Made by a program: the position numbers and the translations under genes
Origin: Bifidobacterium primatium
Lineage (GTDB): Bacteria > Actinomycetota > Actinomycetes > Actinomycetales > Bifidobacteriaceae
Direction of reading: 5' to 3'
DNA length: 64,000 nucleotides
Assembly: GCF_002802875.1 (NCBI RefSeq)
Contig: NZ_PEBI01000001.1
Location: forward strand, 583,830-647,829
In this document: piece after piece, positions 32,957-62,523 of the stretch
Numbering within the stretch: position 1 is the stretch's first letter
Layout of the letters: each line of letters begins with the position of its first letter
Notes under the pieces: model-generated
What the model was told of the DNA's origin: nothing
What the model saw: the letters and a program-made list of their open reading frames with translations, nothing else
Database searches by the model: none

Positions 32957-33118
32957 ATGAATTCCGCCGCTTTCACGGATTCCGCGGCCCTTATGGATTT
33001 CGCCATACTCATGGATTCCGCGGCCCTTATGGATTTCGCCATACTCATGGATTTCGCCGCCCTCATGGATTTCGCCATACTCATGGATTTCGCCGCCCTC
33101 ATGGATTGCGGTGCATTT
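32957..33118. repeat. Nine-unit 18-bp tandem repeat
   Basis: Units begin every 18 bp from 32957 (ATGAATTCC) to 33101 (ATGGATTGCG). They alternate between ATGGATTTCGCCATACTC and ATGGATTCCGCGGCCCTT types. ATGGATT is also the arm sequence of the hairpin units that follow. Coding is unlikely, because no start or ribosome site fits either strand. Confidence 0.9.
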
Positions 33119-33162
33119 CGGGGGATTTTGCCACATCGTCCATCATCAATACCGTAATATTC

Positions 33163-33384
33163 ATGGACTACGCCGCAAAAATACGATTTTGCAGAGCAGT
33201 CCATCGCATTATGCATCCACGCACTTGAGAAACGTTGAAATTTCAAGGCTGTTGTTTTCGTCATCGACGATTTGCGATGGACTGCGTCGTATATACGCGA
33301 TTTTGCAACGCAATCCATCGTCTATGGGCGAATATCGATGGATTGCGCCGTATTTTTGGATTTTTACGACGTAATCCATATCGG
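33163..33384. repeat. Three GATGGA/TCCATC hairpin units
   Basis: Imperfect palindromes of about 46 bp at 33163-33206, 33274-33320 and 33336-33384. Arms are GATGGAYTGCG and CGYARTCCATC with TACGCGATTTTGC-like centres. They are relatives of the arrays at 49069-49533 and 52890-53230. Confidence 0.8.
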
Positions 33385-46425: not shown

Positions 46426-48315
46426 ATGGCATTGCCCACACCTCTGCAGGCATTCAGTGCAGTACCGAAAGGCCCCGTCGAGAAGCTGACGGCGGACAAG
46501 CGCATCGTCAACGGGGAGAAGATGACCGGCGCCAAGGCCGTGGTCCGTACGCTGGAGGACCTGGGGGTCGAGGACGTCTTCGGTCTGCCCGGCGGCGCGA
46601 TCCTTCCCGTGTACGACGCCATCAACGACGACACGAAGTTCCGCTTCGTGCTGGTTCGTCATGAACAGGCGGCGGGTCATGCGGCCGAAGGCTACGCCGT
46701 GGCCACCGGCAAGGTCGGCGTGTGCATCGTCACCTCCGGCCCCGGCGCCACCAACGTGGTCACCGCCATCGCCGACGCGAACATGGACTCCATCCCCATG
46801 GTCGTCATCACCGGCCAGGTTGGTGTGAACGCCATCGGCACCGACGCCTTCCAGGAGGCCGACATCGTCGGCATCACGTATCCGATCGTCAAGCATTCGT
46901 ATCTCGTCACCAGCGCGCAGGACATCCCGCGCGTGCTCTCCGAGGCGTACCACATCGCCCGCACCGGTCGTCCCGGCCCGGTCGTCGTCGACCTGACCAA
47001 GACCGCACAGACCGAGGAACTCTACTACTCGTGGCCGCAGCGCATGATCCTGCCCGGCTACAACCCCACCACAAAGGCCCACGGCCGCGTGCTCTCCAAC
47101 GCCGCCAAGCTGTTCGGCCAGTCGTACCGCCCGGTGCTGTACGTGGGCGGCGGCGCCATGCGTTCCGATGCCGGCGCACAGGTCAAGCGCCTTTCCGAAG
47201 TGACCGGCGCCCCGATCGTCACCACGCTTCCGGCCCGCGGCATCGTCCCCGAATCCGATCCGGCCGTGCTCGGCATGCTCGGCATGCACGGCACGATCGC
47301 CGCCACCGGCGCCGTGCAGCAGTGCGATCTGCTGGTCGCCATCGGCGCCCGTTTCGACGACCGCGTCACCGGCTCGCTGCCCGACTTCGCGCCGGCGGCC
47401 CGCGTCATCCACATCGACATCGACCCGGCCGAGATCGGCAAGAACCGCCAGGCCGACGTGCCGATCGTCGGCGACGTGGCCACCGTGCTCAACGACCTCG
47501 TTCCCGAGATCGAACGCTACCAGGCCATCAACGGCAAGCCCGACCTCGACGCCTGGTGGGACGTCATCAACGATCTTCGCGAGAAGTACCCGATGCAGTA
47601 CGACGAGTCCCCCGACGGCACGCTCGCCCCGCAGTGGGTCGTCCAGGAGCTGAGCCGTCAGGCCTCTCCGGACACGATCTGGGTGTCCGGCGTGGGCCAG
47701 CATCAGATGTGGGCCGCGCAGTTCATCGACTTCCACAAGCCGCATTCGTGGATCTCCTCCGGCGGCCTCGGCACCATGGGCTTCGGTCTGCCGGCGGCGC
47801 TCGGCGCCCAGGTCGGTTCCGACCGCGACTTCGACGGCAAGAAGCCGGTGTGGCTCATCGACGGCGACGGCAGCTTCCAGATGACGAGCGAGGAACTCGC
47901 CGCACTGTTCTTCAACCGTCTGCCGGTGAAGATCGCCATCCTCAACAACTCCGTGTACGGCATGGTCCGCCAGTGGCAGACGCTGTTCTACAAGAACCAC
48001 TATTCGGCCACGAACCTCATGGACGGCGAGGCCAGGCAGGGCGACACCATCGGCGACGGCGCGGACGAGATCATGGACGTGCCCGATTTCGTCAAGCTCG
48101 CCGAGGCGTACGGCTGCGTCGGCATCCGCGCGTTCACCAAGGAGCAGGCCGAGGAGGCCATCAGGAAGGCCAACGAGATCAACGACCGTCCGGTGCTCAT
48201 CGATTTCCGCGTGTGGAAGGACGCCATGGTGTGGCCGATGGTCGCCGCCGGCGCCTCCAACAGCGACGTGACCTACAAGCCCGGCATCCAGCCGCTCAAG
48301 GGCATTCAGGCCTGA
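46426..48315 (+). CDS. ilvB: Acetolactate synthase large subunit
   Basis: ThDP-dependent catalytic subunit for valine, leucine and isoleucine synthesis; 629 aa. The catalytic Glu lies in FVLVRHEQAAGHAAEGYA. FAD-domain segments include IHIDIDPAEIGKNRQADV, and the ThDP motif is WLIDGDGSFQMTSEELAALF with GDG and later NN. A 16-residue N-terminal extension is present. GAGGAAG is the ribosome site. About 160 nt of leader follow a TAGACT hexamer near 46251; no leader peptide rich in Ile, Val or Leu was found. It is in an operon with ilvN, 19 bp downstream. Confidence 0.96.
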   Translation: MALPTPLQAFSAVPKGPVEKLTADKRIVNGEKMTGAKAVVRTLEDLGVEDVFGLPGGAILPVYDAINDDTKFRFVLVRHEQAAGHAAEGYAVATGKVGVCIVTSGPGATNVVTAIADANMDSIPMVVITGQVGVNAIGTDAFQEADIVGITYPIVKHSYLVTSAQDIPRVLSEAYHIARTGRPGPVVVDLTKTAQTEELYYSWPQRMILPGYNPTTKAHGRVLSNAAKLFGQSYRPVLYVGGGAMRSDAGAQVKRLSEVTGAPIVTTLPARGIVPESDPAVLGMLGMHGTIAATGAVQQCDLLVAIGARFDDRVTGSLPDFAPAARVIHIDIDPAEIGKNRQADVPIVGDVATVLNDLVPEIERYQAINGKPDLDAWWDVINDLREKYPMQYDESPDGTLAPQWVVQELSRQASPDTIWVSGVGQHQMWAAQFIDFHKPHSWISSGGLGTMGFGLPAALGAQVGSDRDFDGKKPVWLIDGDGSFQMTSEELAALFFNRLPVKIAILNNSVYGMVRQWQTLFYKNHYSATNLMDGEARQGDTIGDGADEIMDVPDFVKLAEAYGCVGIRAFTKEQAEEAIRKANEINDRPVLIDFRVWKDAMVWPMVAAGASNSDVTYKPGIQPLKGIQA

Positions 48316-48334
48316 CAGGGAAAGGATTTTAGAC

Positions 48335-48889
48335 ATGGCAAACTATCCCGCTTCGCAGCCTGGCTCCCAGCGTCACACGCTCTCCGTGCTGGTGGAGAAC
48401 CGCCCCGGCGTCCTGGCCCGTATCTCCGGCCTGTTCGCCCGCCGCGCGTTCAACATCAACTCGCTGTCCGTCTCCCCCACCGAGCGTCCGGACATCTCCC
48501 GCGTGACGGTGACCGCCGACGTCGACCAGATTCCGCTCGAGCAGATCATCAAGCAGCTGAACAAGCTGCTTCACGTGCTCAAGATCGTCGACCTCGACTC
48601 CGCCAACACGGTGAACCGCGAGCTCGTGCTCGTCAAGGTGGCCGCCGACGCGAAGACCCGTTCCGACGTGCTGGAGATCGTGCAGACGTTCCGCGTTCGC
48701 GTGGTCGACATGCATCCCGAATCGCTGGTCATCGAGGCCACCGGCTCGGGCGAGAAGCTCGACTCGCTGCTCGCGCTGCTCGACGACTACGGCATCATCG
48801 AGCTCGTGCGTTCCGGCTCCGTCGCGCTGACCCGCGGTCCGCGCGCCCTGAGCGAAAAGGTCGTCGGCTCCGAAATCAAGGGCCGCTGA
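48335..48889 (+). CDS. ilvN: Acetolactate synthase small (regulatory) subunit
   Basis: The regulatory ACT-domain partner of IlvB that confers valine feedback inhibition; 184 aa. HTLSVLVENRPGVLARISGL is the ACT N-terminal strand and valine-site segment, and LVIEATGSGEKLDSLLALL belongs to the C-terminal domain. AAAGGA lies upstream. The stop codon is the first element of an 11-bp tandem repeat. Confidence 0.96.
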   Translation: MANYPASQPGSQRHTLSVLVENRPGVLARISGLFARRAFNINSLSVSPTERPDISRVTVTADVDQIPLEQIIKQLNKLLHVLKIVDLDSANTVNRELVLVKVAADAKTRSDVLEIVQTFRVRVVDMHPESLVIEATGSGEKLDSLLALLDDYGIIELVRSGSVALTRGPRALSEKVVGSEIKGR

Positions 48890-48940
48890 CTTCCGGCTGA
48901 CTTCCGGCTGACTTCCGGCTGACTTCCGGCTGACTTCGGT
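48886..48940. repeat. 11-bp tandem repeat starting at the ilvN stop codon
   Basis: CTGACTTCCGG is repeated four times plus a partial fifth. It then decays into CGGTCGGCTT repeats. The first unit contains the ilvN TGA, so each unit adds another in-frame or near-frame TGA. Confidence 0.9.
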
Positions 48941-49037
48941 CGGCTTCGGTCGGCCGGTTTTCGACTGGCTTCGGTCGGCTTTTGGCACCGCCAGCCTCAG
49001 CCGACCTCAGGAATCGACGGCTGGTCTATGCACTTAG

Positions 49038-49068
49038 GGCTCCTCTCAACTCCGAGAGGAGCCTTTTT
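49038..49068 (+). terminator. Terminator of ilvBN
   Basis: The 10-bp stem GGCTCCTCTC/GAGAGGAGCC is followed by TTTTT. Confidence 0.92.
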
Positions 49069-49533
49069 CGATGGATTGCGACGCAATCATGCCAATCCGC
49101 GGTTCCATCCATCACAAACCGACCAGCTTCAATGGGCTACGCGGCAAAAACAACCGAATCACAGTCCAATCCATCGAAAACCACCCAGTGTCGATGGACT
49201 GAACCGCAATTACGTCAATATGCAATCCAGTCCATCGGGAATCATCGAAATCCGATGAATTGGACCGTATTTTCGCGTAAATGCGCCGCAGTCCATCATC
49301 GGCAGGCAATCCGATTCGAAGAAACCGCATGATTCCAACGTTTTGAAAACCAACCCAATGATTCTCCGATGGACCGCACCGCAAAATCATCAAATTGCAG
49401 CCCGGTCCATCGAAAACCGCTCGGCTCCGATGGATTGGGCTGCAATTACACCGATTTGTGGCGCAATCCATCCACTCCATTTAATCGCGGTGGATTACAC
49501 CGCAAATCTCTCAAATCGCGAGGCAAACCACCC
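49069..49533. repeat. Periodic hairpin array (about 61-bp period), left copy
   Basis: Imperfect palindromes of about 46 bp start near 49069, 49131, 49192, 49253, 49367, 49428 and 49488, with a degenerate slot near 49310. Arms follow GATGGAYTG/CARTCCATC and are separated by about 15-nt spacers. Paired changes include GATGGACTG/CAGTCCATC, GATGGACCG/CGGTCCATC and GGTGG/CCACC. No gene or transposase is present. Confidence 0.88.
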
Positions 49534-49604
49534 CGCGAGTCATCAGATTCCGACAGATTCCACCGCAAATTCCCCTGAATAATCGCAGCGCAATTCACCG
49601 AACG
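49191..49604. repeat. Long direct repeat, left boundary of accessory island
   Basis: 414 bp, about 90% identical by eye to 52889-53297. It ends with AATTCACCGAACG in both copies. Together they bracket the KAP NTPase and toxin-antitoxin genes. Confidence 0.9.
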
Positions 49605-49723
49605 TGCATATCCATGTCTCAAGTCATTTCCTGCATCCCTGCGATACGTCCCTCCTGATCATCCATATCGACAATCAACGGCTATATGATGAGGATTAAC
49701 ACCACAAACGGGGGACGACGACG

Positions 49724-52039
49724 ATGTACGTAAACGATCAGCCGATCACGAACACCAATAATCTGGAAGACGAGTTCAACCGCGAAAATCTTGCCAATGG
49801 CATCGCCAGGGTTCTGGAGCAATGCGACGTCAAACACGGCAGCATGACCATATCCATCGAAGGCTCCTGGGGCAGCGGCAAGACATCCCTGAAAAACCTC
49901 GTGATTCGTCAACTTGAGCGGCATTGGCAGGACAATGCCGCAAAAGCTCATGAACAAAGCGAAAAAGAGGGTTCCGAAGAAACCCAAATCCCCTCATACC
50001 CGCTGTGTGTACCCTTCGACCCCTGGATGTTCTCGGATGCCAGCAATGTGGTCGAGATGATGTTCGCCACCATTGCCGGCAGACTTGAAGATAAATCCGA
50101 GCTCGAGCAAACGCGGGAGCAACGACGGAAGAATCGTCTCGAAACAGCGGCTAAAATCAGCGGTGAGGCAGTTGAAGCCGTTGGCGCATTCGCCAGCTAC
50201 ATTCCGAATGCCGCACCATTGGCCTGGGGTTTCAAGCAAATCTCCAAACTGCTCAAGCCGGATCCGGAAAGTCCCCTACAGCTCACCGAAATACGTGAGC
50301 AACTGTCGCATGAGCTGGAATACAAAGCGTCCGATCTCCGCATCTATGTGTTCATCGACGAAATCGACCGGCTCGACGATCAGGGAATCGCCGACATCTT
50401 CAAAGCCCTGAAGGCGGTCGGCGATCTGCCCCATGTGGTGTATATTCCGGTCTACGACCGAACCATCGTCTCCGAGGCGCTCAACAAGGTGTCCAATCAT
50501 TCCGGCTCCGATTATCTCGACAAAATCGTCCAGATGCCGATTCCCATGCCGGAGGTTCCGTTCGAAGTCATCATCAGGAACCTGAAAATCGCATGCGGCT
50601 TTGATGATACGCAATTGGAAAAACGCCCTTGGCAGAAGGATATAGTGGAGAAGACCGTTCTGGCCTACGTCAAGAACAAACGCGATGCCAACCGTCTGCA
50701 GAACGCATTCCTTCTGCGCAAGCAGGTGCTTGCCGGAGAGGTCGATTACGGCGATCTGTTCGCCATCACCGCCATCTCCATATTCCGTCCATCACTGCTT
50801 CGCTGGATTTATATGCATAAGGATGCCCTACTCGACAGCGGCGCACTTGTGGCTAAAGAGATATCTAAGCAGACTCGAAAAGTCTCCATCAGAGTAAACG
50901 CGGAAGACTCGGACCTCGCCGATCATTACAATCTTCTTAAAGAAGAAATTGATGATGTCTCATATTGGAGAGAAGGCCTCGCGCTGGAACTCCTGTTCCC
51001 CGTTTCCCATTACATGAAGAAAGTAAATCCCGAATCTCATCGCATTGCCTCTGCCCAATCATTCGATGTGTATTTCACACTTACTTCAGAGTCAAGAACT
51101 GCAGTATCTTCAGAGACTATAAAGCAGTATGTTCTCCTATATGACCTCACCCGTTTACAAGAAGATACTTTTATAAAGCTTCCCCACAATCAAATAGCGA
51201 GCTGGATTAACGCAAAACAATCTTCCGGAGCCCATGAAATACCTATGGCTCGCATTGAGCAGCTATTGGAAGTCTATCAACGATTCTATGGCTCAGTAAT
51301 AGAGGACGAGCGCGATTGGGCAAATGAATTCCCGCGCTCTATAAGTCATACAGGATATGAAAAGCTCAATCCCGCCATACCAGCAAATCGTGTTATTGCG
51401 GAGCTCTTGAGAAGTTTTCCCATCGACGAACGGCAGACTCATATATTCACCTGCATCGATTTATTAACTTCCAGACATCAGTCTGTTCCCGGTTATGACT
51501 TAATACTGCGTTTAACCAGTCTGATTGGAGAAATAACCGATGATGACGACAAGCAGAATCATTCTTACGTTGAAAACATGCTTGATCGTCTATCCATGAA
51601 TAAATGGCTTTATCAAGCCAATGGCATAGACCTGTCTCTTGTTCTTAATGCGTTTACCGAAATCGACGTGTCAGGAGTGCGACGAGCATTATCAAAACTC
51701 AGTGCGACTCAGTTACTAGAAATTGGAAACAACTGCGAAAAAACGGTTCCATCAACTTATTACTCCGATCCTCGACCTGATGACCTACGGTATCAAGTTC
51801 CTGTTGAATTGTTAATTGAGCTGTGGAAACACATGGATGCATGGTCTGAACCATCATCGCATGATAATCTCACCCTTCGTGCACTCAAAGAGTGGATACA
51901 AGAAGGGCCTAAAAATGCTACAGCCTTGCCTGAGGATTGGTACAGCAGCCCCACTCGTTATAAGGAAATCGTCGGGCAAGACGGTGAAGGATGGGATATA
52001 GCTGAAGTGCCAGATTCACATCCAGCGGAAGCTGAGTGA
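49724..52039 (+). CDS. KAP-family P-loop NTPase
   Basis: A 771-aa protein of the KAP NTPase class. Walker A is GSWGSGKTS (47-55). The typical KAP insertion between Walker A and B is present and includes a hydrophobic stretch (about 149-170). Walker B is IYVFIDEIDRL (207-217). The C-terminal ~400 residues are helical with no recognised domain. KAP proteins include phage-exclusion factors such as PifA, so defence is a reasonable hypothesis only. The second half (from about 50900) is clearly richer in A and T than neighbouring genes, suggesting acquisition by transfer. It lies in a repeat-bounded island with a toxin-antitoxin pair. GGGGGA precedes ATG 49724. Confidence 0.85.
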   Translation: MYVNDQPITNTNNLEDEFNRENLANGIARVLEQCDVKHGSMTISIEGSWGSGKTSLKNLVIRQLERHWQDNAAKAHEQSEKEGSEETQIPSYPLCVPFDPWMFSDASNVVEMMFATIAGRLEDKSELEQTREQRRKNRLETAAKISGEAVEAVGAFASYIPNAAPLAWGFKQISKLLKPDPESPLQLTEIREQLSHELEYKASDLRIYVFIDEIDRLDDQGIADIFKALKAVGDLPHVVYIPVYDRTIVSEALNKVSNHSGSDYLDKIVQMPIPMPEVPFEVIIRNLKIACGFDDTQLEKRPWQKDIVEKTVLAYVKNKRDANRLQNAFLLRKQVLAGEVDYGDLFAITAISIFRPSLLRWIYMHKDALLDSGALVAKEISKQTRKVSIRVNAEDSDLADHYNLLKEEIDDVSYWREGLALELLFPVSHYMKKVNPESHRIASAQSFDVYFTLTSESRTAVSSETIKQYVLLYDLTRLQEDTFIKLPHNQIASWINAKQSSGAHEIPMARIEQLLEVYQRFYGSVIEDERDWANEFPRSISHTGYEKLNPAIPANRVIAELLRSFPIDERQTHIFTCIDLLTSRHQSVPGYDLILRLTSLIGEITDDDDKQNHSYVENMLDRLSMNKWLYQANGIDLSLVLNAFTEIDVSGVRRALSKLSATQLLEIGNNCEKTVPSTYYSDPRPDDLRYQVPVELLIELWKHMDAWSEPSSHDNLTLRALKEWIQEGPKNATALPEDWYSSPTRYKEIVGQDGEGWDIAEVPDSHPAEAE

Positions 52040-52070
52040 CTCGCGTATTACGTTCGCCGTGCACCCAAAC

Positions 52071-52114
52071 ATCATCATAATCATGATTCAAATTTGAATT
52101 CTAATCGTGATGAT
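52071..52114. promoter_or_regulatory. Nested palindrome upstream of the antitoxin gene, probable autoregulatory operator
   Basis: A central 14-bp palindrome ATTCAAATTTGAAT (52086-52099) lies within a wider dyad ATCATCA...TGATGAT. It is 37 bp before the antitoxin ATG, the expected place for toxin-antitoxin autoregulation. Confidence 0.65.
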
Positions 52115-52150
52115 TTTACAATCGTCAAGAGCACACACAAAGGAGTACCC

Positions 52151-52453
52151 ATGACCTCGATTCTGGATAATCTCGTTCCCGTCAGCGAATTCAGCCACGG
52201 CGGGGCCAGCCGCGCATTCAACCGCGTCGGGGACGGCAACCCCGTCGTCGTCATGAAGAACAACAAACCCTCGGCCGTCATCATCTCACCGGACGATTAT
52301 CGGCGTTTCACCGAGGCCGAGGAGAACTTCGCCCTCTATCTCGAAGCGCAGGAACGCCTCAAGAACGACGATGGCACCCTGCTTTCCCCCGAGGAAGTAT
52401 TCGGCAAGGACTACAAGCCCGCCGATGACGGCTACGAACCGGAGTTCGAGTAA
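52151..52453 (+). CDS. Phd/YefM-type antitoxin
   Basis: A 100-aa antitoxin. The N-terminal DNA-binding fold shows VPVSEFSHGGASRAFNRV and the strand GNPVVVMKNNKPSAVIISPDDY, the Phd/YefM core. The acidic C-terminal half would wrap the toxin. ATG 52151 has AGGAG 5 nt upstream. Its TAA stop overlaps the ATG of the toxin gene by one base, so translation is coupled. It probably represses its own promoter through the upstream palindrome. Confidence 0.88.
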   Translation: MTSILDNLVPVSEFSHGGASRAFNRVGDGNPVVVMKNNKPSAVIISPDDYRRFTEAEENFALYLEAQERLKNDDGTLLSPEEVFGKDYKPADDGYEPEFE

Positions 52454-52782
52454 TGCGATGGGACGTCAGGTACACCAAAGCCGCGAAGAAAGACATTCGG
52501 TCACTGCATGAGCCGATCATCGGGCACGTCTTCAAGGCCATCGAAAGGGTCTCGACCAATCCCCTGCCGACCACCGAAGGCGGCTACGGCAAGCCTCTCG
52601 GGAACAAGCGCGGCAATAACCTCACCGGACTCATGAAGGTCAAACTTCGTGGCGACGGCATCCGCATCGTCTACAAGCTTGAACGAACCGAACACATGAT
52701 GCGCATCATCATTGTCAGCGTCCGCGACGACTACGCCGTCTACAACGAAGCGGCGAAAAGGATTGCCAACGGTCGGGATTGA
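52453..52782 (+). CDS. RelE/ParE-superfamily toxin
   Basis: A 109-aa basic protein with the RelE fold pattern: WDVRYTKAAKKDIRSL, then a Gly-rich loop (GGYGKPLGNKRGNNLTGL), LRGDGIRIVYKLE and IIIVSVRDDYAVYNEAAKRI. The target (ribosome-dependent mRNA cleavage or gyrase) cannot be fixed from sequence; the Arg/Lys set and YNEA end suit an RNA-acting RelE type. It overlaps the antitoxin by 1 nt. The right copy of the long direct repeat begins about 105 bp downstream. Confidence 0.88.
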   Translation: MRWDVRYTKAAKKDIRSLHEPIIGHVFKAIERVSTNPLPTTEGGYGKPLGNKRGNNLTGLMKVKLRGDGIRIVYKLERTEHMMRIIIVSVRDDYAVYNEAAKRIANGRD

Positions 52783-52888
52783 CGGAGAGAAAGCGTCCAC
52801 TCGGAATCAGACGACGATACGGCATTCCCCCGTGAATTAAGTCGATTTCTTGTACGAAAGCCTCGCGTCACGACTCCATCCACGATGG

Positions 52889-53297
52889 CCGATGGACTGC
52901 ATCGCAATTACGCCAATATGCAATCCAGTCCATCGAAAATCATCGCAATCCGATGGATTGGACCGTATTTTCGCGTAAATGCGCCGCAGTCCATCATCGG
53001 CAGGCAATCCTATTTAAAGAAACCGCATGACTCCAACGTTTTGAAAACCAACCCGACGATTCTCCGATGGACCACACCGCAAAATCATCAAATTGCAGCC
53101 CAATCCATCGAAAACCGCTCGATTCCGATGGATTGGGCTGCAATTACACCAATTCGCCGCGCAATCCATCCATTCCATTTGACTGCGATGGAGTACACCG
53201 CAAATCTCTCAAATCGCGAGGCAATCCACCGCGAATCATCAGATTCCGACAGATTCCACCGCAAATTCCCCTGAATCACAGCACAATTCACCGAACG
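52889..53297. repeat. Long direct repeat, right boundary of accessory island, containing hairpin array
   Basis: 409 bp matching 49191-49604. Hairpin units lie near 52890-52935, 52951-52995, 53065-53110, 53127-53171 and 53186-53230, keeping the ~61-bp period with one degenerate slot. Relative to the left copy, some arm bases differ on both sides of the stem. No gene was seen in 52783-53317. Confidence 0.9.
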
Positions 53298-53317
53298 CTC
53301 GAACACGCCGAACGCGT

Positions 53318-55069
53318 CTACTTTGCTTCGCCCGCAGACGCACCGGCCACACCGGACGCGCCAGCCTCGCTGCCACGGGAGGCCTTGAGCATGGAGACGC
53401 AGGTGCCGGCGAGCAGCAGCGCGGCCGAGGCCAACGCGACTGCCGCAATTGCGGTGCCGGTGGTCGCCAGCGTCCTGTTCTGTTCGGCGACAGGCGTCTT
53501 GCCCTGCGAGTTCGCCAGCCACTGCTGGGCGGCGGTACGGTTCGCGGCGGCCGAGCCGTCACCGGACGACGTCAGTCCCGAGCCGGCCCCGGTCCCCGAG
53601 ACTCCCGCACCGTTCGGCGTATTGCCGGAACTGCCACCGATGGAGGGAATCTTCTTCCATCGCGCCGTGTAGGTGGCGTCTTCGCGCACCGGCAGGAACC
53701 GGTTGAATCGCATGCCGGAAGCGGAATACCAGCCGTCCAGCATCATGCCGCTCGGGGCCTGCGGCGAGGGGATGTCGCTGCTGAGCAGCCACAGCCCCTT
53801 GAGCACCGTCGACTGCTTCTGATGCGTCCTGCCGGCGGCATCCTTCCATATGAAGGTCACTGTCACATGAATCACATCACTCGGGGAGCCGCCGTTGCCA
53901 CCGTTGCCGTTACCGCCGTTGCTCTTCAGCGTGGCGACCAGATGCATGTTCCAGCCTTCGGCCACGCCGCCCGAAAGATTCGCATCATACGTCTTGCCGG
54001 TGAGCTCGTCGGTCCAGCCGGTGATGCTGTAGCCTGCCGGCACGAGCGCATTGATTACGCCCTGCTTGGCGGCGAGCGCTTCGGAAAGCGACGAACCGGT
54101 CTTCACGCGTTCAAGCACGAACAGATTGCCCACCGAGAACATGATCTGCGTGTTGGTGGCCTGCAGATCGGAAACGGCGAAGAAGGTCGTGTCCACGTTT
54201 GCCGCGCCGGCGTCGGAAAGGTCGGCCTTGTATGTGTGGAGCAGTGCGTGCCAGCCGGTGATCCTGAGATTCGCCGGCATACGGGATTCGATCTGCGATT
54301 TCACGGCCGCGTAGGCGTCGGCGTATGAGCTGCCGCGGTCCACCGTGGTGCTGACGACGGCGTTCGCCACGTTCGGAATCACGAACCGCACATGCACCTG
54401 CGCGCTCGTGGACGGCAGGTCGGGCAGCTGCTGCGCCAGCACGGCGGTGAACGTCACCGTCTTCTCGCCGCTCACCTTCGCGCCGAGCAGGTCGGCGGAG
54501 TACGTTACGCCCGTCGACGACTTCCATCCGACGATCACGTACCCTTCCGGCACATCGAGCTCGGTGTCGCTGGGCACGGTCACGTCGAGACTGCCCGTGT
54601 AGGTGCGGGTCACGGTGGTGTGACGCCCGTTGACCGTGAACGTGATCTCGGTGCTGTATTCGCGGCTTGCACCGCCATCGCCGTCGGCGTTGGAGCCACT
54701 GGTATTGGATGAGCCGCTGCCGGCCGCAGCATCATCGGACGAGACGCCGCCTGACGGTCTGCCATCAGCCGAACTGCTGCCACTGCCGGCCGCCGAACCG
54801 GAGCCCAATCCCGACGTCGTATCCGAACCGCCGTTCGTCTTGCCGACCGTCGAGGAGTCCCCCGATGCCGCAATGGTCGCGCCGGCAGTCGCACCGGCCG
54901 CGTTCCCCGCTCCGCCGGCCGTGCCATCCGCCGCGAATGCCGTCCCCGGTGCCACGGCCACGAATCCCAATGTCGCCACGGCCACAACGGCCGCAGTCAG
55001 CCGACCGATTTTCGAATTCCTGCCACGGGAGTCATTACCGCGGGAATCCCTGCCCCAGCGTGCACGCAT
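53318..55069 (-). CDS. Secreted cell-wall surface protein with InlB-type repeat and LATTG tail
   Basis: A 583-aa protein. Basic N-terminus, signal helix (LTAAVVAVATLGFVAVAPGT, cleavage near FAA-DG), then a Gly/Ser/Ala-rich low-complexity region of about 100 residues. Several beta-grasp or InlB B-repeat-like modules follow (YVIVGWKSSTGVTYSADLLG, YSITGWTDELTGKTYDANL, MLDGWYSASGMRFNRF), typical of Listeria/Bacteroides-type adhesins. The end has LATTG, a hydrophobic helix and KASRG, a variant sortase signal. ATG 55069 has AGAGG 8 nt upstream; ATG 55075 is in frame. Adhesion is inferred only. Confidence 0.82.
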   Translation of the reverse strand: MRARWGRDSRGNDSRGRNSKIGRLTAAVVAVATLGFVAVAPGTAFAADGTAGGAGNAAGATAGATIAASGDSSTVGKTNGGSDTTSGLGSGSAAGSGSSSADGRPSGGVSSDDAAAGSGSSNTSGSNADGDGGASREYSTEITFTVNGRHTTVTRTYTGSLDVTVPSDTELDVPEGYVIVGWKSSTGVTYSADLLGAKVSGEKTVTFTAVLAQQLPDLPSTSAQVHVRFVIPNVANAVVSTTVDRGSSYADAYAAVKSQIESRMPANLRITGWHALLHTYKADLSDAGAANVDTTFFAVSDLQATNTQIMFSVGNLFVLERVKTGSSLSEALAAKQGVINALVPAGYSITGWTDELTGKTYDANLSGGVAEGWNMHLVATLKSNGGNGNGGNGGSPSDVIHVTVTFIWKDAAGRTHQKQSTVLKGLWLLSSDIPSPQAPSGMMLDGWYSASGMRFNRFLPVREDATYTARWKKIPSIGGSSGNTPNGAGVSGTGAGSGLTSSGDGSAAANRTAAQQWLANSQGKTPVAEQNRTLATTGTAIAAVALASAALLLAGTCVSMLKASRGSEAGASGVAGASAGEAK

Positions 55070-55329
55070 TCTCATCGCCTCTACTCTTCTACAGTGCTCA
55101 TACGGCATCCGCCGATACGACGTCCGCTCACGCCCGGCCGTATGCCGATGCACAACGGAATGCCGACGCGGACGCTTCGCGCCGACGCGGCATCCGTCAT
55201 GCCCCTTACCTATAGACCGTATTGTATCTCGCTTATTTCAACATGTTGATGGCATTGTTCACGACATGACATCGCCCGGCATCGGACCTACTATGGCAAC
55301 GAGAGAGCAAGAAAAGACAGAGGAGCATC

Positions 55330-55821
55330 ATGAACGAGGAAGACGACGAGCATCCTCACGACGACTCGCAGCACGACTACGATCGCGACCGCACGCGGCC
55401 GACGACGCCGGACACACCTGACGACGACGCCCCCAACTCCAGTGCCGACGACCCCGTCATTCCTCCCGATGAGAGCGGCAACGACAATGGCAACATCGAT
55501 GCCGACAGCACCGGCGAAACCGACGACGACAACAACACCAACAACGTCATCGACGAGGATGAAGAGGACGAGGAGACCAGCTCCACGGCCGTCCAGCAGC
55601 TCAGCGCCGCAGCGGTGATACTCGGCATCGTCGCCATCGTATTGTGCTTCATACCGAAGGTTCCGCTCACCATCGCGCTCGCCGTCGCCATCGTCGGCAC
55701 CGTGCTAGGCCTGGTGAACTGTCTTTCGGCCACCGTATTGCATCAGCCCCGCATACGATTCGCCGCGGCGGGGGGAACGGTGATCGGCGCCTTGGCCATC
55801 ATCACCGTCCTCTTCCTGTGA
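55330..55821 (+). CDS. Hypothetical membrane protein with acidic N-terminal half
   Basis: Not recognised beyond a DUF4190-like pattern. 163 aa: the first ~90 residues are Asp/Asn/Glu-rich and probably disordered, followed by three hydrophobic segments (AAAVILGIVAIVLCFIP, TIALAVAIVGTVLGLVN, GGTVIGALAIITVLFL). GAGGAG lies before ATG 55330. It is divergent from the InlB-like surface protein and convergent with the AIM24 gene. Confidence 0.75.
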   Translation: MNEEDDEHPHDDSQHDYDRDRTRPTTPDTPDDDAPNSSADDPVIPPDESGNDNGNIDADSTGETDDDNNTNNVIDEDEEDEETSSTAVQQLSAAAVILGIVAIVLCFIPKVPLTIALAVAIVGTVLGLVNCLSATVLHQPRIRFAAAGGTVIGALAIITVLFL

Positions 55822-55831
55822 TGGTGATAGA

Positions 55832-55947
55832 GGCGTGATGGTGATGGAGGCGGTGTGTCTTCGACGCACCGCCTAGCTCGACGTACTTTTGTACGCCTTC
55901 GCACACGGACCGCCGAATCCGCACACATCCTGCATCACCATCACGCC
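55832..55947. terminator. Large stem-loop between convergent genes
   Basis: GGCGTGATGGTGATG (55832-55846) pairs with CATCACCATCACGCC (55933-55947). Inside are GGCGGTG/CACCGCC (55849-55873) and GTAC-TTTT-GTAC. Its position suggests bidirectional termination. Confidence 0.6.
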
Positions 55948-55964
55948 GCCTCCGTCGAATCGAA

Positions 55965-56765
55965 TCACACCGAGCCGGAGCCGGCGTTGATGCCGAACGT
56001 CGGCGCGGCGACCGGCGCGAGCAGCACACGGCCGGAGCCGCGGTAGACGTTGACGAGTCCTTCGCCGCTGGCAGCGGAGCCGATGAGCGTCTTGCCCGAG
56101 CGCTCGACGGTGAACTGCAGGCCTGAGGTCCATGCGATGGCGAAGTTGCCGTCGATCTTGAGCACGTCGTTTTCGAGGTCGATGGTCACGAGTTCGGACG
56201 CGGGGACGGGCGATTCGAGGGCGACCGTGCCGGCGCCCTCCAATGCGAGGTTGAACAGGCCTTCGCCGCCTGCGACCATGGCGCTGGGCCGCGAGACCAT
56301 GACGGCGCGCTGGCTTACGGTGGATTCGCAGGCGTAGAACAATCCGTCGTTGACGGTCATGCTGCCGCCCATCTGACGCATGGGGTCGAGCAGCAGGATG
56401 TGACGGTACGTGGGTTCGAGCACGAGCATGCCGCTGCCGACGTATTCGGGCTTGATGGCGGATTCCTTGGTGACGGCGCCGCGGGCCATCTTGCCGATGA
56501 AGTCGCCGACGCCCTTCACACCGGTCGTGGCCTCGATGTTGCCGGCGACCCACTGCATGGCGCCGGCCTGTACGGTGGCGCCGACGCGGCCGTTGAGATT
56601 GCAGATGACCTGACGGCGACGAACGTTCATTTCGGAGGCGAAGTAGGCGCTGATGGCATCGCCGTATCCGACCGAAAGATCGCGTTTCCATTCGATGACC
56701 TGGAAGATGCCCTGCTGGGCCACGATGTCAACGTCGTCGTTGTCCGTGAAATTGTAGATTCTCAT
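55965..56765 (-). CDS. AIM24 family protein
   Basis: A 266-aa cytoplasmic beta-helix protein of the AIM24 family (TIGR00266 type). FQVIEWKRDLSVGYGDAISAYF, GGSMTVNDGLFYACESTVSQ and AGGEGLFNLALEGAGTVALE are typical. Bacterial members have no settled role. The start at 56765 has GGAAAGGA 5 nt upstream. It is divergent from the beta-helix surface protein gene. Confidence 0.88.
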   Translation of the reverse strand: MRIYNFTDNDDVDIVAQQGIFQVIEWKRDLSVGYGDAISAYFASEMNVRRRQVICNLNGRVGATVQAGAMQWVAGNIEATTGVKGVGDFIGKMARGAVTKESAIKPEYVGSGMLVLEPTYRHILLLDPMRQMGGSMTVNDGLFYACESTVSQRAVMVSRPSAMVAGGEGLFNLALEGAGTVALESPVPASELVTIDLENDVLKIDGNFAIAWTSGLQFTVERSGKTLIGSAASGEGLVNVYRGSGRVLLAPVAAPTFGINAGSGSV

Positions 56766-56917
56766 GCCGTTCCTTTCCGGTTGAATCCCATCGTTTTCCC
56801 AGTGTACGGCATCGGTATTCGCGGGCCGCGAGCGCGAGACCCCGGATGTACGGACGGGGTGTGAACGCTTTTTCGTGGAATACCCGACGAATGATAAAGA
56901 GGGTATCATTCATGCAA

Positions 56918-56938
56918 TCCCATAGGGGGTATAGACTG
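56918..56938 (+). promoter_or_regulatory. Promoter-like motif GGGGG-NN-TAGACT before the beta-helix surface gene
   Basis: GGGGG (56925-56929), two bases, then TAGACT (56932-56937) and G. The same geometry, GGGGG-NN-TATACT-G, occurs before the other sortase-substrate gene at 62511-62524. Confidence 0.5.
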
Positions 56939-56990
56939 GTGGATAGTGCCCGAAGAGATACTGACGGCAAGGGGAAAGCGAAGGAGCGAA

Positions 56991-59540
56991 ATGACACAAC
57001 GTGACTTCTCCACATCAACAAACGTACGGTCCGTGAAGGGCGGCATCGTGCGCATGGCGATCGCCGGCATGGCCGCCGTCGCCATGGCGGCACCCTTCAT
57101 TACCCCCGTTTCCGCAAACGCGGCGACGGAGACCGCGACCACAACGACCGTGGCCGCGAGCACGAAGGCCACGGCCGGCGCGTTCACCGCCGACGGCAAG
57201 ACCTTCGACAGCTTCACCGACGCGCTTGCCGCGGCCGCGAAGGCCGACGACAAGACGGTCACCATCACCGAATCCACCGATGCGAGCCTGTCGGTCGCCA
57301 ACACCTACGAGGGCATCACCGTCACGGCCGCCAAGGGCGTGGTCTTCTCCGGCTCGCTGCGCGTCAACGCATCCAAGGCGACCGTGAAGAACATGACGTT
57401 CAAGCTCGATCCGGCCACGAGCAAGAACGCCCAGAACCTCATCGTCAGCGGCAAGGCCGCCGGCGTGACCATCACCGGCAACACCTTCGAGATCGCGGCC
57501 GGCGATCCGGCGAACGGCGCATCCAAGAACCCGGATTGGCAGCCCAGCTCGGTGTGGCTGGAGAACGGCGCGAACGGCACCGTCATCAGCAAGAACACGT
57601 TCAAGCTCGGCCAGGTCGTCAATAATTCCGCCGTCGGCGTGAACATCGTCGGCAACGGCACGAATCCGATCACCGGCACCAAGATCACGAACAACACGGT
57701 GACGTCCGGCCCGATTTCCGGCGAGGGCAAGTCCGGTTCGATGATGTTCGTGGTGGGCAACGGCAACACGCAGGCCGGCTCCTACGGCATCACCGACACG
57801 ACGATCAGCGGCAATATCGTGAAGAATGAAACGGGCCTTTCCGCAAGCACGTCGAGGACCTACGCCTTTGCGGTGACCGCCACCAAGAACACGGTCATCG
57901 ACGACAACACGGTCGAAGGCTACGCCGCCGTCTCCTACAGCGTCTGGCCGAGCCAGGGACCGAACGACGGTCTGAAGGTCACGAACAACACGCTTGATGC
58001 GTTCGCCGGCGTGCTGATGGGCAGCTACGTCACCGAAGGCGGCCTGACCGTCGACGGCAACACCTTCGGCAAGAACACGCAGTACGCCTACAACGGCAAC
58101 ACCACGTACGCCGTCAACCAGGACGGGAAGGCCTACTCCTCCGTCGCCAAGGCCATCGAGACCGGCGCGACCACCGTCAAGCTGCTGCAGAACGTGACCG
58201 AGGACGTGACGATTCCGGCCGGCAAGACCGTCACAATCGACCTGGCCGGCTTCACACTGACCAACAAGGCCGGCCACACCATCACCAACAAGGGCACGCT
58301 GACCGTCAAGGACTCCTCCGCCAAGAAGACCGGCGTCATCGACAACGTGACACATCAGAAGGCGGCCCTCTACAACGAGGAAGGCGCCACGGCCACGCTC
58401 GACGGCGGCAAGTTCAAGCGCTCCAAGGAGACCGGCACCGCGGACAACACCTTCTACACGATTCTCAATCACGGCGACATGACCATCAACGACGGCACCA
58501 CCGTGGAGCTGCTGCTCTCCGACGGCAAGCCCGCCGGCTACTCCAGCCTCATCGACAACGGCTACTACTCCGGCAAGCCCGCGAACGGCAAGAACGCCAC
58601 CATGGTCATCAACGGCGGCACGTTCGACGGTGGCCGTTACGTGAAGAACGACTCCTACGGCGACATGACCATCAACGGCGGCACGTTCAAGAACGGCGCC
58701 TCCGACGCGGTGCTCAACTGGCATCACCTGACCATCAACGGCGGTTCGTTCGACCCGGCCGACTCCGCAAGCGGCATCCTGCTGAACGGCAAGGTCTACA
58801 AGGGCTCCGAGGACGGCGTGGCCACGATCACCGGCGGCGAGTTCACGCTGACCGGCAGCCAGAAGGTCGTCGTGCTGCCGGCGGCCTCCGGCCCGAGCCA
58901 GGGCTCCGAGAACGTGACGATCTCCGGCGGCACGTACGCCGGCGTGAAGCCCGAGGCCAAGTACATCATCAAGAGCTCCGGACTGACGACCAACGAGGAC
59001 GGCACGTTCGGCGTGAAGAAGGCCGTGCTGACGCTCGGCACGACGTCCGTGAAGCACGACGTCGCCAAGGGCGAGCTGACCGCCGACGCCATCACCACGC
59101 TGGTCGCCCCGTCCGTCAACGTCGAAGGCTATACGATTTCGGCCGACGAGCAGCAGCTCGCCGCGATCAACGAGGCCATCAAGGCCGGCCGCACCGGTGA
59201 TTTCGAGCTGAAGTTCAACGCCGTCAAGGAAGGCGCGACCGAGGCCACGATCACCACGCTGACCGAGACCGCCACCGTCACGCTGACGAAGGCCGAGGAG
59301 CCGGCGCCGAACCCGGAGCCGAGCGACAAGCCTTCGGACAACGGCGGCGCGGCCAAGCCGAGCGCCAAGCCGACGACTCCGTCGAGCAACCCGACGACCA
59401 CCACGGGCAATAACGCGAACGGCACGAACGCGAACCGACTGGGCAAGACCGGCACCGCCATCGCCGGCATCTCCGCGGTCGCCATCGCCCTGCTCGCCGC
59501 CGGCGGCATCACCATCGCCGTCCGCCGTCGCAAGGCGTGA
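56991..59540 (+). CDS. Secreted cell-wall beta-helix surface protein with LGKTG tail
   Basis: An 849-aa extracellular protein. Signal sequence in residues 1-45 (VRMAIAGMAAVAMAAPFITP). The body is a long right-handed parallel beta-helix, shown by recurring VTITGNTF, TKITNNTV, TTISGNIV, MTINGGTF and LTINGGSF turns, as in pectate-lyase-like or polymorphic surface repeat proteins. No catalytic triad was identified. A Pro/Ser/Thr-rich spacer leads to LGKTG, a hydrophobic helix and RRRKA, a variant sortase signal. AAGGAG lies just before ATG 56991. Glycan binding or surface structure is likely; enzymatic action is unproven. Confidence 0.85.
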   Translation: MTQRDFSTSTNVRSVKGGIVRMAIAGMAAVAMAAPFITPVSANAATETATTTTVAASTKATAGAFTADGKTFDSFTDALAAAAKADDKTVTITESTDASLSVANTYEGITVTAAKGVVFSGSLRVNASKATVKNMTFKLDPATSKNAQNLIVSGKAAGVTITGNTFEIAAGDPANGASKNPDWQPSSVWLENGANGTVISKNTFKLGQVVNNSAVGVNIVGNGTNPITGTKITNNTVTSGPISGEGKSGSMMFVVGNGNTQAGSYGITDTTISGNIVKNETGLSASTSRTYAFAVTATKNTVIDDNTVEGYAAVSYSVWPSQGPNDGLKVTNNTLDAFAGVLMGSYVTEGGLTVDGNTFGKNTQYAYNGNTTYAVNQDGKAYSSVAKAIETGATTVKLLQNVTEDVTIPAGKTVTIDLAGFTLTNKAGHTITNKGTLTVKDSSAKKTGVIDNVTHQKAALYNEEGATATLDGGKFKRSKETGTADNTFYTILNHGDMTINDGTTVELLLSDGKPAGYSSLIDNGYYSGKPANGKNATMVINGGTFDGGRYVKNDSYGDMTINGGTFKNGASDAVLNWHHLTINGGSFDPADSASGILLNGKVYKGSEDGVATITGGEFTLTGSQKVVVLPAASGPSQGSENVTISGGTYAGVKPEAKYIIKSSGLTTNEDGTFGVKKAVLTLGTTSVKHDVAKGELTADAITTLVAPSVNVEGYTISADEQQLAAINEAIKAGRTGDFELKFNAVKEGATEATITTLTETATVTLTKAEEPAPNPEPSDKPSDNGGAAKPSAKPTTPSSNPTTTTGNNANGTNANRLGKTGTAIAGISAVAIALLAAGGITIAVRRRKA

Positions 59541-59611
59541 CACCTTTCCCAACGCCGACAGGGGAGACGTTGCGCCTAGCGGTGTGACGAAGGGAGAGTT
59601 CACGATATAGC

Positions 59612-59667
59612 AAAAAGGTCTTGTGGAGTGGTTCCACACATCGGAAACCACTTCACAAGACCTTTTT
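59612..59667. terminator. Bidirectional terminator between the surface gene and cysS
   Basis: AAAAAGGTCTTGTG pairs with CACAAGACCTTTTT, with inner arms AGTGGTT/AACCACT. A-run and T-run on both sides serve convergent genes. Confidence 0.92.
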
Positions 59668-59753
59668 CATATTCGAGGCCGAATTTCCCCTTCACTCATC
59701 ATTCACTGCGTGCACGAATCCACCGCCACGCCCGATGATGCCCTGTCGTTCGG

Positions 59754-61352
59754 TTATTTCAGCGACCAGGTCGAGCCCGAAGCGGTGTCCTCGATCGCCA
59801 CGCCGGCGGCGGCGAGGGCGTCACGGATGGCGTCGGCCTTGGCGTAGTCCTTGTTCTTGCGGGCAGCGGCGCGCGCATCGAGCTGCTCGGAGATGAGCGC
59901 GTCGAGCACATCGTGCTCCTTGTTGCCCTCACCGTCGGAACCGCCGGCCGACCATTCCTCGGCGAGCGGATCGAGGCCGAGGGTGTCGAGCATGGCGCGC
60001 ACGGAGACGAGTCGGCTGCGGATGTCGGCGCGGGCGGCGTCGGTGTCGGCGGCGTCCTCGAGCTTGGAAAGCAGCGTGTTGCCGGCGCGCACGGCGCTGA
60101 ACACGGCGGCGACGGCCCCGGCCACGTTGATGTCGTCGTTCATGGCGGCCACGAAGTCCTGCGGCAGGTCGCCGGCGCCGACGCTCTGGATCTCGTCGCG
60201 CGAGGGCTGTTCGCCGATCACGCCGCCGGCGCGTTCGATGAAGTTGGCGACGCGGTCGTAGGCGGCCTGTGCCTCGTTGAGCGTCTGATCGCCCCACTCA
60301 AGCATGGAGCGGTACTGCACGGAGGCGAGCGCGTAGCGCACGACCCAGGCGCTGTGTTCCGCAAGCACGGTGGGCACGGAGAGGCCGTTGCCGAGCGACT
60401 TGCTCATCTTCTCGCCCTTCTGCGTCACCCATGCGGAGTGCATCCAGTGGTGGGCGAATCCCCAGCCGGCGGCGCGGGACTGTGCGGTCTCGTTCTCGTG
60501 GTGGGGGAAGCGCAGGTCGAGGCCGCCGCCGTGGATGTCGAAGTCGTCGCCGAGGTAGCGGTGGCTCATGGCGGAGCATTCGAGGTGCCATCCGGGACGG
60601 CCCACGCCGAACGGCGTCACCCAGCGGGCGTCGAGCGGATCGGTGTCCTTGGGGGCCTTCCACAGGGCGAAGTCGCGCGGGTCGCGCTTGTCGGGCGAGG
60701 CGTCGGCGGCGTCGACCGGATTGTACTTGTCGGGGCCGGTGGCGTCGACGCTGGGGCCCATGCGGTCGGCCACGGCGGCGGCCTCGTCGGCGGCGGGCTT
60801 GGTGCCGGTCTCCTGGTGCGTCAGCTCGCCGTAGCGCGGCCAGCTGGCCACGTCGAAGTACACGTTGCCGCTGGGCTTGCCGTCGGGGCCGGGCACGACG
60901 TAGGCGTGGCCGTTGTCGATGATGCGCTGGATGAGGTCGATCATATCGAGCATGTGGCCGGTGGCGCGCGGCTCGTAGGTGGGCGGCAGTACGCCGAGCG
61001 TCTCGTACGCCTCGGTGAACTCGCGCTCGTAGATGTAGGCGCGCTCCCACCAGCGCTGGCCGGCGGCACGGGCCTTGTCGAGGATCTTGTCGTCGATGTC
61101 GGTCACGTTGCGCACGAACGTCACCTTGTAGCCCAGTCGCAGCAGCCAGCGGCGTACGACGTCGAACGCCACGGCGGCGCGGATGTGGCCGACGTGCGGG
61201 GAGCTCTGCACGGTGGCGCCGCACACGTAGATGCCCACCTCGCCGGGATGAATCGACTCGAAGGGCGCGATGCTATGGGTCGCGGTGTCGTACAAACGCA
61301 GGTTGCTTGCCACGGAATCGTTGAAATCAAGCGGTTTTGGGGTGCTAGTCAT
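59754..61352 (-). CDS. cysS: Cysteinyl-tRNA synthetase
   Basis: Class I synthetase, 532 aa. Zinc-ligand Cys in [17 protein letters not shown] with the HIGH motif, [33 protein letters not shown] and EKMSKSLGN (KMSKS). An insert of about 45 residues rich in Ala/Asp/Pro (about 205-250, around [13 protein letters not shown]) lengthens the protein relative to the ~460-aa norm. TATTCT (61364-61359) lies 6 nt before ATG 61352 and no ribosome site is present, indicating a leaderless message. It is divergent from the glutamine amidotransferase gene. Confidence 0.95.
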
Positions 61353-61544
61353 AATTCGAGAATATGCGTGATGTCCGACATAGGCAAGCATCGGCACACC
61401 ACTTTCCGCATCCTCGTCATAACCGTTTTCTTTAGCCTTTCCCAACCGGCCCGCAATGCCCCGTCCGGTCGTTCATCAAGGCGTTACACGGGAAATCGGC
61501 CGTACTGCCGCGATAGTCCGCCGTTCGGTGTCACAATAGAAGGT

Positions 61545-62267: not shown

Positions 62268-62335
62268 ACGCCTTCAACGCAGCCAAACACCCCGTCGGGA
62301 TATACCCCCATAAAGACGTTGATTTTCATCGAAAT

Positions 62336-62372
62336 CGTCGTATATGCACCCCCGTGCATATACGACGTTTTT
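62336..62372 (+). terminator. Terminator of the amidotransferase gene
   Basis: A 14-bp perfect stem CGTCGTATATGCAC with its complement, loop CCCC, then TTTTT. Confidence 0.92.
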
Positions 62373-62510
62373 CTTTTGGCTGCGGTTTCCGCGTCATTGC
62401 TTCGAAATACATAGGTTAGCGCTCACATCCCGGCCTTCGTTCATCGTCACCGCCCTCCACGTCGATTACCCCCGACAGCCGACATCTACCCGTAAATCAT
62501 TAGACCTTAC

Positions 62511-62523
62511 GGGGGTGTATACT
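62511..62523 (+). promoter_or_regulatory. Promoter-like motif GGGGG-TG-TATACT
   Basis: TATACT at 62518-62523 is preceded by GGGGGTG, an extended -10-like arrangement shared with 56925-56937. Confidence 0.55.

What the first reader, a model, noticed from the sequence alone, without database searches (positions are those of the whole stretch)
49191..53297. KAP NTPase plus Phd/RelE pair bracketed by 0.41-kb direct repeats
Two direct copies (49191-49604 and 52889-53297), about 90% identical by eye, enclose 3.3 kb with a KAP P-loop NTPase and a toxin-antitoxin module. The NTPase 3' half is AT-rich against GC-rich surroundings. No integrase or transposase is present. Homologous recombination between the repeats would excise the whole cassette, and the toxin-antitoxin pair would select against loss. 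KAP proteins include PifA, a phage-exclusion factor, so a defence cassette is a testable idea.
Basis: partly seen in the sequence, partly recalled or inferred. Interest (0 to 1): 0.75.

Follow-up and report, generated by a model that had tools for sequence, protein, structure and literature searches.

The report
Palindrome arrays bracketing an accessory module
In a Bifidobacterium, a possible phage-defence gene and a toxin-antitoxin pair sit between two copies of an intergenic palindrome array that recurs around the genome, and the array's 19-base centre also occurs in Actinomyces although the sites around it differ there.

Summary
The repeats match at 375 of 409 aligned bases and enclose a KAP NTPase and a Phd/RelE-type pair. 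Another (G001) has the toxin-antitoxin pair but no KAP.

The repeats are not a dedicated cassette boundary. They are two of at least 16 arrays in this genome: 44-bp palindromes at fixed 61/114/61-bp spacing around an asymmetric 19-bp core, AAACCGCATGATTCCAACG. At the fixed offset, 53 of 62 long intervals carry the core with 3 or fewer mismatches and the other 9 a symmetric variant. The exact core also occurs in Actinomyces, at a similar offset between inverted arms of different sequence. No RAYT transposase in 16 genomes; nothing in Rfam or in my paper searches.

Best reading: a BIME-1-like protein-DNA site whose copies also serve as homology for gain and loss of gene modules. A second locus shows this with metabolic cargo. 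Phage defence by KAP is plausible and untested. The array family is more interesting than the cassette.

The parts
48335..48889 (+). ilvN, acetolactate synthase small subunit (left flank)
   Evidence: PF10369 E 1.8e-29; one match in each of the 9 genomes of the genus
49038..49068 (+). terminator-like hairpin followed by a T run after ilvN
   Evidence: read from the sequence; near-identical in G005 and G001; no terminator scan was run
49070..49604 (.). left array: palindromes at 49070, 49131, 49193, 49254, 49368, 49429, 49489 and a weak one at 49552
   Evidence: model R1 hits and spacing
49322..49340 (+). 19-bp core AAACCGCATGATTCCAACG of the left array (exact)
49724..52039 (+). KAP P-loop NTPase, 771 aa; 3' half AT-rich
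   Evidence: PF07693 E 1.9e-39; PADLOC PifA E 7.6e-57; composition
52068..52117 (.). palindromic stretch upstream of the antitoxin, possible TA autoregulation operator
   Evidence: inverted repeat I9; similar sequence before the G001 copy; role inferred
52151..52453 (+). Phd/YefM antitoxin, 100 aa
   Evidence: PF02604 E 2.5e-9, TIGR01552 E 4.7e-7
52453..52782 (+). RelE/ParE-like toxin, 109 aa (weak family match)
   Evidence: PF05016 E 4.9e-4, below cut-off; relatives 46-56% identical in 22 viral contigs
52891..53297 (.). right array: palindromes at 52891, 52952, 53066, 53127, 53187; the end corresponds to the weak last unit of the left array but is not itself an R1 hit
53020..53038 (+). 19-bp core of the right array (1 mismatch)
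53318..55153 (-). surface-protein-like gene (right flank, 611 aa, LATTG plus hydrophobic tail)
   Evidence: no Pfam or NCBIfam hit; tail read from the translation; similar DNA next to ilvN in G001, G002, G003, G005, G006 and G008, not seen in G004 or G007
33100..33380 (.). another array of the family in the window: 4 palindromes at 62/114/61 with the symmetric core variant AAACGTTGAAATTTCAAGG at 33230

Best explanation
The direct repeats are two copies of one chromosomal array element of a dispersed family. Each element is a set of 44-bp dyad-symmetric sites at fixed spacing around an asymmetric 19-bp core, most likely a protein-DNA assembly site of the BIME-1 type (inferred). The KAP-TA module entered, or can leave, at a resident array by homologous recombination between array copies: array + [KAP-TA-array] gives array-KAP-TA-array, and the reverse crossover leaves one array. 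Shown: the architecture, its dispersion, the empty site in another species, the alternative contents and the conserved core. Inferred: the recombination route, protein binding, and the defence role of KAP with the TA pair resisting loss.
For: Single-array site in G005 and TA-array without KAP in G001. Left and right arrays are closer to each other (375/409) than to the G005 array (330/398 and 322/396), so the second copy is younger than the G000-G005 split or has been homogenised. Fixed architecture over 64 fetched arrays in 4 genomes, orthologues included: 180 of 189 intervals are 60-62 or 114-115 nt, and the core (3 or fewer mismatches) lies in 53 of 62 long and 1 of 118 short intervals. Taken by position alone over all 62 long intervals, pairwise identity is 0.83 in the core against 0.30 and 0.41 in the linkers. 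Core orientation is unrelated to the direction of co-directional neighbours: 14 same, 16 opposite of 30 such arrays with a core (hand count). Modular cargo between arrays at a second locus.
Against: No read-level or experimental excision. G005 is a different species, not a strain. The two G000 arrays are 8% diverged. At 33 informative sites G005 matches the left copy at 19, the right at 13 and neither at 1, in mixed runs, so no single clean crossover can be read. 8 of 10 array loci compared between G000 and G005 are collinear, so arrays are often stable. In an Actinomycetaceae case the right breakpoint does not coincide with the element. No binding protein has been identified.
Confidence: 0.72

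Rival explanations
1. A dedicated, selected defence cassette: KAP is a PifA-like exclusion factor, the TA pair anchors it, and the arrays evolved as its exchange boundaries.
For: PADLOC PifA E 7.6e-57; unusual base composition; accessory distribution.
Against: At least 16 arrays in this genome, 8 of 10 compared loci without cargo difference from G005, and a rhamnosidase module between arrays elsewhere. The TA pair occurs without KAP in G001. No listed best stretch of any Pfam, PADLOC or NCBIfam match reaches beyond residue 469 of 771. No match in phage records and no close relative by pattern in genome contigs or viral contigs; distant relatives exist in 1060 plasmid records.
Confidence: 0.15
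2. A mobile non-autonomous element (MITE or REP type) that once transposed with an unseen transposase; the architecture reflects transposition, not host use.
For: Dispersed, lineage-patchy (G000, G001, G004 and G005 strong and G006 once, none of the other 94 of 99 genomes), largely intergenic palindromes.
Against: No Y1_Tnp in 16 genomes searched, G006 among them with only weak element matches. 13 of 14 G000 array loci have an array at the matching place among the fetched G005 loci. Spacing is kept although linkers have diverged. The core is shared between Bifidobacterium and Actinomyces while the arms differ, the reverse of a terminal-repeat element.
Confidence: 0.2
3. A structured non-coding RNA encoded by the array, the core being its unpaired recognition segment.
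For: Long palindromes; Actinomyces arms are more complementary to their own partner than to others (16.9 against 14.1 of 24, 0 of 5000 permutations, 41 of 43 cores). Own-partner pairing exceeds cross pairing at positions 7-9 in G000 and G005 (9 and 33 of 2000 permutations), and marginally at 10-13 in G005 (88 of 2000).
Against: No excess over shuffles on any of five measures in the first 32 units; no excess in G001 or G004. No Rfam match other than tRNA at gathering score. Core orientation is random with respect to flanking genes. The Actinomyces excess may reflect species relatedness.
Confidence: 0.1

Closest known systems
BIME-1 / REP elements of enterobacteria (inverted REP palindromes around an IHF-binding linker)
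   Same: Extragenic imperfect palindromes at regular spacing around a central conserved stretch. [quoted passage not shown]
   Different: No RAYT in 16 genomes. The core is shared between Bifidobacterium and Actinomyces while the flanking sites differ. Palindromes are 44 bp at 61/114 spacing. The core matches the IHF consensus (recalled) only at 2 mismatches, as do 859 of 20000 shuffles.
PifA (F plasmid KAP NTPase, phage exclusion)
   Same: KAP NTPase domain, best PADLOC model over residues 4-469.
   Different: Among the 20 listed of 1060 plasmid records with a match, identity is 22.8-29.6%; no listed match beyond residue 469; no function tested.
Integron gene cassettes
   Same: Modules separated by repeated palindromic sites, with empty and alternative contents.
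   Different: Resemblance recalled only. Sites are whole arrays on both sides of a module, and several stand without any cargo difference; no integron integrase search was made.
Type II toxin-antitoxin Phd/YefM-RelE
   Same: Adjoining antitoxin and toxin genes with a palindrome upstream.
   Different: The toxin match is weak; activity untested.

Membership tests
REP/BIME | extragenic imperfect palindromes, regularly spaced | tested here: met
   180 of 189 intervals at 60-62 or 114-115 nt; largely intergenic by a rough home-made ORF call in which some arrays overlap called ORFs
REP/BIME | associated RAYT transposase (Y1_Tnp) | tested here: not met
   0 of 16 genomes, control rings in 5 of 14; own genome 0
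REP/BIME | high copy number (over 100 palindromes per genome) | tested here: inconclusive
   129 R1 matches in G000 counting both strands, 150 of 1284 candidates scored, so roughly 65 palindromes as a lower bound
REP/BIME | central linker bound by IHF (BIME-1) | not testable with these tools
   only a weak consensus resemblance
PifA defence protein | KAP P-loop domain with Walker motifs | tested here: met
   PF07693 E 1.9e-39; GSWGSGKT, VFIDEIDR
PifA defence protein | full-length similarity to PifA | tested here: not met
   profile matched 7-454 of 720 in its best stretch
PifA defence protein | phage exclusion | not testable with these tools
   needs a plaque assay
Type II TA Phd/RelE | Phd/YefM antitoxin next to a RelE/ParE toxin | tested here: inconclusive
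   antitoxin over cut-off, toxin below cut-off
Composite transposon / insertion element | transposase within or beside the repeats | tested here: not met
   none of the three genes between the repeats nor the two flanking genes hits a transposase or integrase family (ilvN only); small ORFs not scanned
Integron | integron tyrosine integrase | not tested
   no search made

The most novel reading that the evidence does not exclude
A family of chromosomal protein-DNA sites shared by Bifidobacterium and Actinomyces: a 19-bp asymmetric core, read by one conserved (perhaps DNA-bending) protein, held at a nearly fixed distance between inverted sites whose sequence has been replaced wholesale in each lineage. 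In B. tissieri the exact core lies between inverted DnaA boxes at oriC, and a form like the symmetric variant lies at that place in G006, so its use may extend to replication initiation. Copies double as joints at which accessory modules, including the KAP-TA module here, are swapped.
Probability: 0.3. Interest if true: 0.85.

Novelty: new variant of a known kind. Interest (0 to 1): 0.6.

Why it matters
Bacterial interspersed palindromes have been explained by a cognate transposase and described as species-specific (PMC2817692, passages read). Here the centre is shared between genera while the palindromes differ at a similar geometry, and no such transposase was found in 16 genomes. That points to a conserved DNA-binding partner that could be pulled down directly. 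It also suggests a concrete route by which defence and metabolic modules enter the same intergenic sites.

Tried and rejected
KAP relatives by pattern in genome contigs (6 stretches matched a pattern, none confirmed) and viral contigs: none. KAP in phage records: no match. Weak KAP relatives in 4 other genomes of 99 were not followed. RNA structure: only tRNAs in Rfam at gathering score; the permissive search of one array gave only matches far below cut-off. RAYT-driven REPs rejected. The exact core is in no viral contig. The recurring CAACCGCATGATTCCAAGG hits were set aside as probably coding: in three genomes of genus g15 whose ilvN place is known they lie about 3-3.6 kb from it, and the string reads in frame as NRMIPR; this is my reading, not an annotation, and for the others the place was not checked. 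The asymmetric core as a general part of oriC: among 30 dnaA loci G008 has it exactly and G002 a 5-mismatch form at the same place; six further 5-mismatch hits lie elsewhere, with about 0.08 expected per locus. The symmetric pattern CGTTG-N6-CAACG occurs once in these loci, at that place in G006, with 0.1 expected in all; this pattern was chosen after the fact. IHF consensus: too weak to use. My first conservation figure for the core (0.91) was inflated because elements had been chosen by core match; the unselected figure is 0.83. Four spellings of 14 core bases appear in no paper text of the library searched; repeat searches for Bifidobacterium and Actinomyces listed nothing relevant by title and abstract start or nothing at all.
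Full report
Observation. The two direct repeats exist at the stated coordinates (375 of 409 aligned bases identical). They enclose a 771-aa KAP NTPase, a Phd/YefM antitoxin and a weakly RelE/ParE-like toxin. GC falls to 43-45% in the 3' part of the KAP gene against about 65% outside. The cassette lies between ilvN and a surface-protein-like gene.

What the repeats are. Each repeat is an array of 44-bp palindromes of the form GATGGAYTG...CARTCCATC. BLAST with the left copy finds 19 places in the own genome. A covariance model of the unit (R1) gives 129 matches in G000, both strands counted and 150 of 1284 candidates scored. With stricter filters it matches 5 of 99 genomes: G000, G001, G004 and G005 strongly, G006 once, none of the other 94. 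I fetched loci around listed hits, not all copies, and found 64 arrays with 253 palindromes in four genomes, 16 of the arrays in G000.

Architecture. Of 189 intervals between successive palindromes, 180 are 60, 61, 62, 114 or 115 nt. A 19-bp asymmetric core, AAACCGCATGATTCCAACG, lies with 3 or fewer mismatches in 53 of 62 long intervals and 1 of 118 short ones, and 56 of 57 such cores keep the expected offset. Read by position alone, the 62 long intervals split sharply: 53 have 0-3 mismatches to the core and 9 have 7-8, and these 9 resemble one symmetric variant, AAACGTTGAAATTTCAACG. The array at 33100 in the window is of that variant. Over all 62, orthologues included, pairwise identity is 0.83 in the core and 0.30 and 0.41 in the linkers. 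In 48 non-redundant elements (of 57, chosen by a core match, which inflates the core figure of 0.91) the two inner palindromes score 0.55 and 0.57, the two outer ones 0.36 and 0.39 in an ungapped frame, and 0.25 is expected at random. Geometry is thus kept where linker sequence is not.

The core outside this clade. An exact scan of one genome per species found 67 stretches: 22 in Bifidobacterium records, 42 in Actinomyces records and 3 elsewhere (two Gemmatimonadota MAGs and a Pseudomonas), the last close to the 1.9 that I estimate by chance (counts by hand from its table). In Actinomyces the core lies about 28 nt and 31 nt from inverted arms, typically TGTCCAAATCGGTGACAAAGG. At those places 39 of 43 cores have TGTC or CGTC on both sides, allowing one or two bases of play. 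By complementarity alone the result is weaker: the best inverted pair around the core beats all of 60 shuffles in 29 of 43 Actinomyces cores, in 18 of 24 Bifidobacterium cores and in 0 of 3 others. In the Bifidobacterium arrays the offsets are 24 and 27 nt, with the same three-base asymmetry. Single cores in other Bifidobacterium species do not all fit: B. thermophilum arms lie at 38 and 41 nt, B. tissieri and B. aesculapii have arms at unequal distances, and B. biavatii, B. goeldii, B. miconisargentati and B. callitrichidarum show no arms above shuffles. With two mismatches allowed, 33 of 396 genomes of the order have a match; the own genome has 19, seven genomes of the family that holds Actinomyces sp. 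HPA0247 have 4 to 9, and the reversed-pattern control gives at most 1 in a genome.

oriC. In B. goeldii and B. miconisargentati the core lies just upstream of tRNA genes. In B. tissieri it lies between inverted DnaA boxes upstream of dnaA; G008 has the same stretch. At that place G002 has a 5-mismatch form and G006 the symmetric pattern CGTTG-N6-CAACG, expected 0.1 times in the 30 dnaA loci together. The second pattern was chosen after seeing the variant cores, so this is a lead, not a test. G000, G001, G003 and G005 have other sequences there.

DNA or RNA. In the first 32 units pairing did not exceed shuffles on any of five measures. In larger sets own-partner pairing exceeds cross pairing at positions 7-9 in G000 and G005 and marginally at 10-13 in G005, not in G001 or G004. 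In Actinomyces own arms pair better than mixed ones (16.9 against 14.1 of 24; 0 of 5000 permutations; 41 of 43 cores, two dropped at locus ends), but species relatedness is not removed. Core orientation is independent of co-directional neighbours: 14 same and 16 opposite in 30 such arrays with a core, 4 more without (hand count). Flanking genes by a rough ORF call are convergent at 21, co-directional at 34, divergent at 6 and incomplete at 3 of 64 arrays. I favour a DNA site.

History at the locus. G005 has ilvN, the terminator, one complete array and the surface gene: the empty site. G001 has ilvN, part of the first palindrome, the TA pair, an array and the surface gene, with no KAP. G002, G003, G006 and G008 go from ilvN to the surface gene with no array; G004 and G007 lack the surface gene there too. 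KAP matches 1 of 9 genomes of the genus. The toxin matches 5 of 99 relatives, own genome included, one weakly. The left and right arrays resemble each other more than either resembles the G005 array. The simplest account is integration of a [KAP-TA-array] segment at a resident array by homologous recombination. It is an inference; the mixed runs of informative sites suggest later gene conversion.

Other loci. Between two arrays 2 kb apart (G000 C1:377480-380006), G000 and G005 carry one gene without Pfam match, G004 carries a three-gene module that on the G001 copy reads MFS, rhamnosidase, LacI, and G001 carries both with a third array between them. In a chain of elements in four genomes of one Actinomycetaceae genus, one genome lacks a 259-aa gene and has a single element that looks like a hybrid of the two flanking ones, though the right breakpoint does not coincide with the element. 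Against a general role, 8 of 10 array loci compared between G000 and G005 are collinear through the array, one has about 2.3 kb more in G000 and one falls at contig ends. 13 of 14 G000 loci have an array at the matching place among the fetched G005 loci.

Function of the cargo. The KAP protein is closest to the PADLOC PifA model over its first 469 residues. PifA is a defence protein active against T7-like phages (PMC11990801, passages read). 1060 plasmid records hold a relative, and the 20 listed are 22.8-29.6% identical. No match in phage records and no close relative by pattern in viral contigs or genome contigs. Toxin relatives (46-56% identical) occur in 22 viral contigs. Defence is a fair hypothesis that nothing here tests.

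Comparison with known systems. The element looks like a BIME-1 (inverted palindromes around a recognised centre; PMC2817692, passages read). It fails the RAYT criterion in 16 of 16 genomes searched, G006 among them with only weak matches, and differs in having a centre shared between genera. No Rfam family reached its cut-off over the arrays searched, and my paper searches found no description; unpublished or subscription work may exist.

Noticed in passing
L116 4508-4725 (B. tissieri), L240 555-772 (G008), L245 690 (G006): Exact core (first two) or symmetric CGTTG-N6-CAACG (third) between inverted DnaA boxes at oriC; other congeners have the same spacing but different sequence there.
   Followed up: partly
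nine long intervals, e.g. window 33230, L054, L085, L101, L102: A second, symmetric core type (AAACGTTGAAATTTCAACG) at exactly the offset of the asymmetric core.
   Followed up: partly
L185-L188 (four Actinomycetaceae genomes): Core elements stand in several successive intergenic gaps of one gene cluster, with a gene present or absent between two elements.
   Followed up: partly
L131, L134, L176: Core without recognisable arms upstream of tRNA genes, followed by GACACGCCG in all three by eye.
   Followed up: no
window 48883-48981: Short tandem repeats of about 11 nt (CGGCTGACTTC) directly after ilvN.
   Followed up: no
L058/L183, G000 C1:377480-380006: Two arrays bracket a 325-aa gene without Pfam match; other species have a rhamnosidase module there.
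   Followed up: yes
L047 and L048, between ilvN and the surface gene: A different intergenic repeat (CTTCCCCTCGAGGGGAAGGTG-like) in G002 and G003 where arrays stand in G005.
   Followed up: no
window 46499-64000 against L045: Identity to G005 changes sharply along the region (92.5% to 49569, 83% over 52924-55835, 97.8% from 55947), suggesting mosaic recombination.
   Followed up: no
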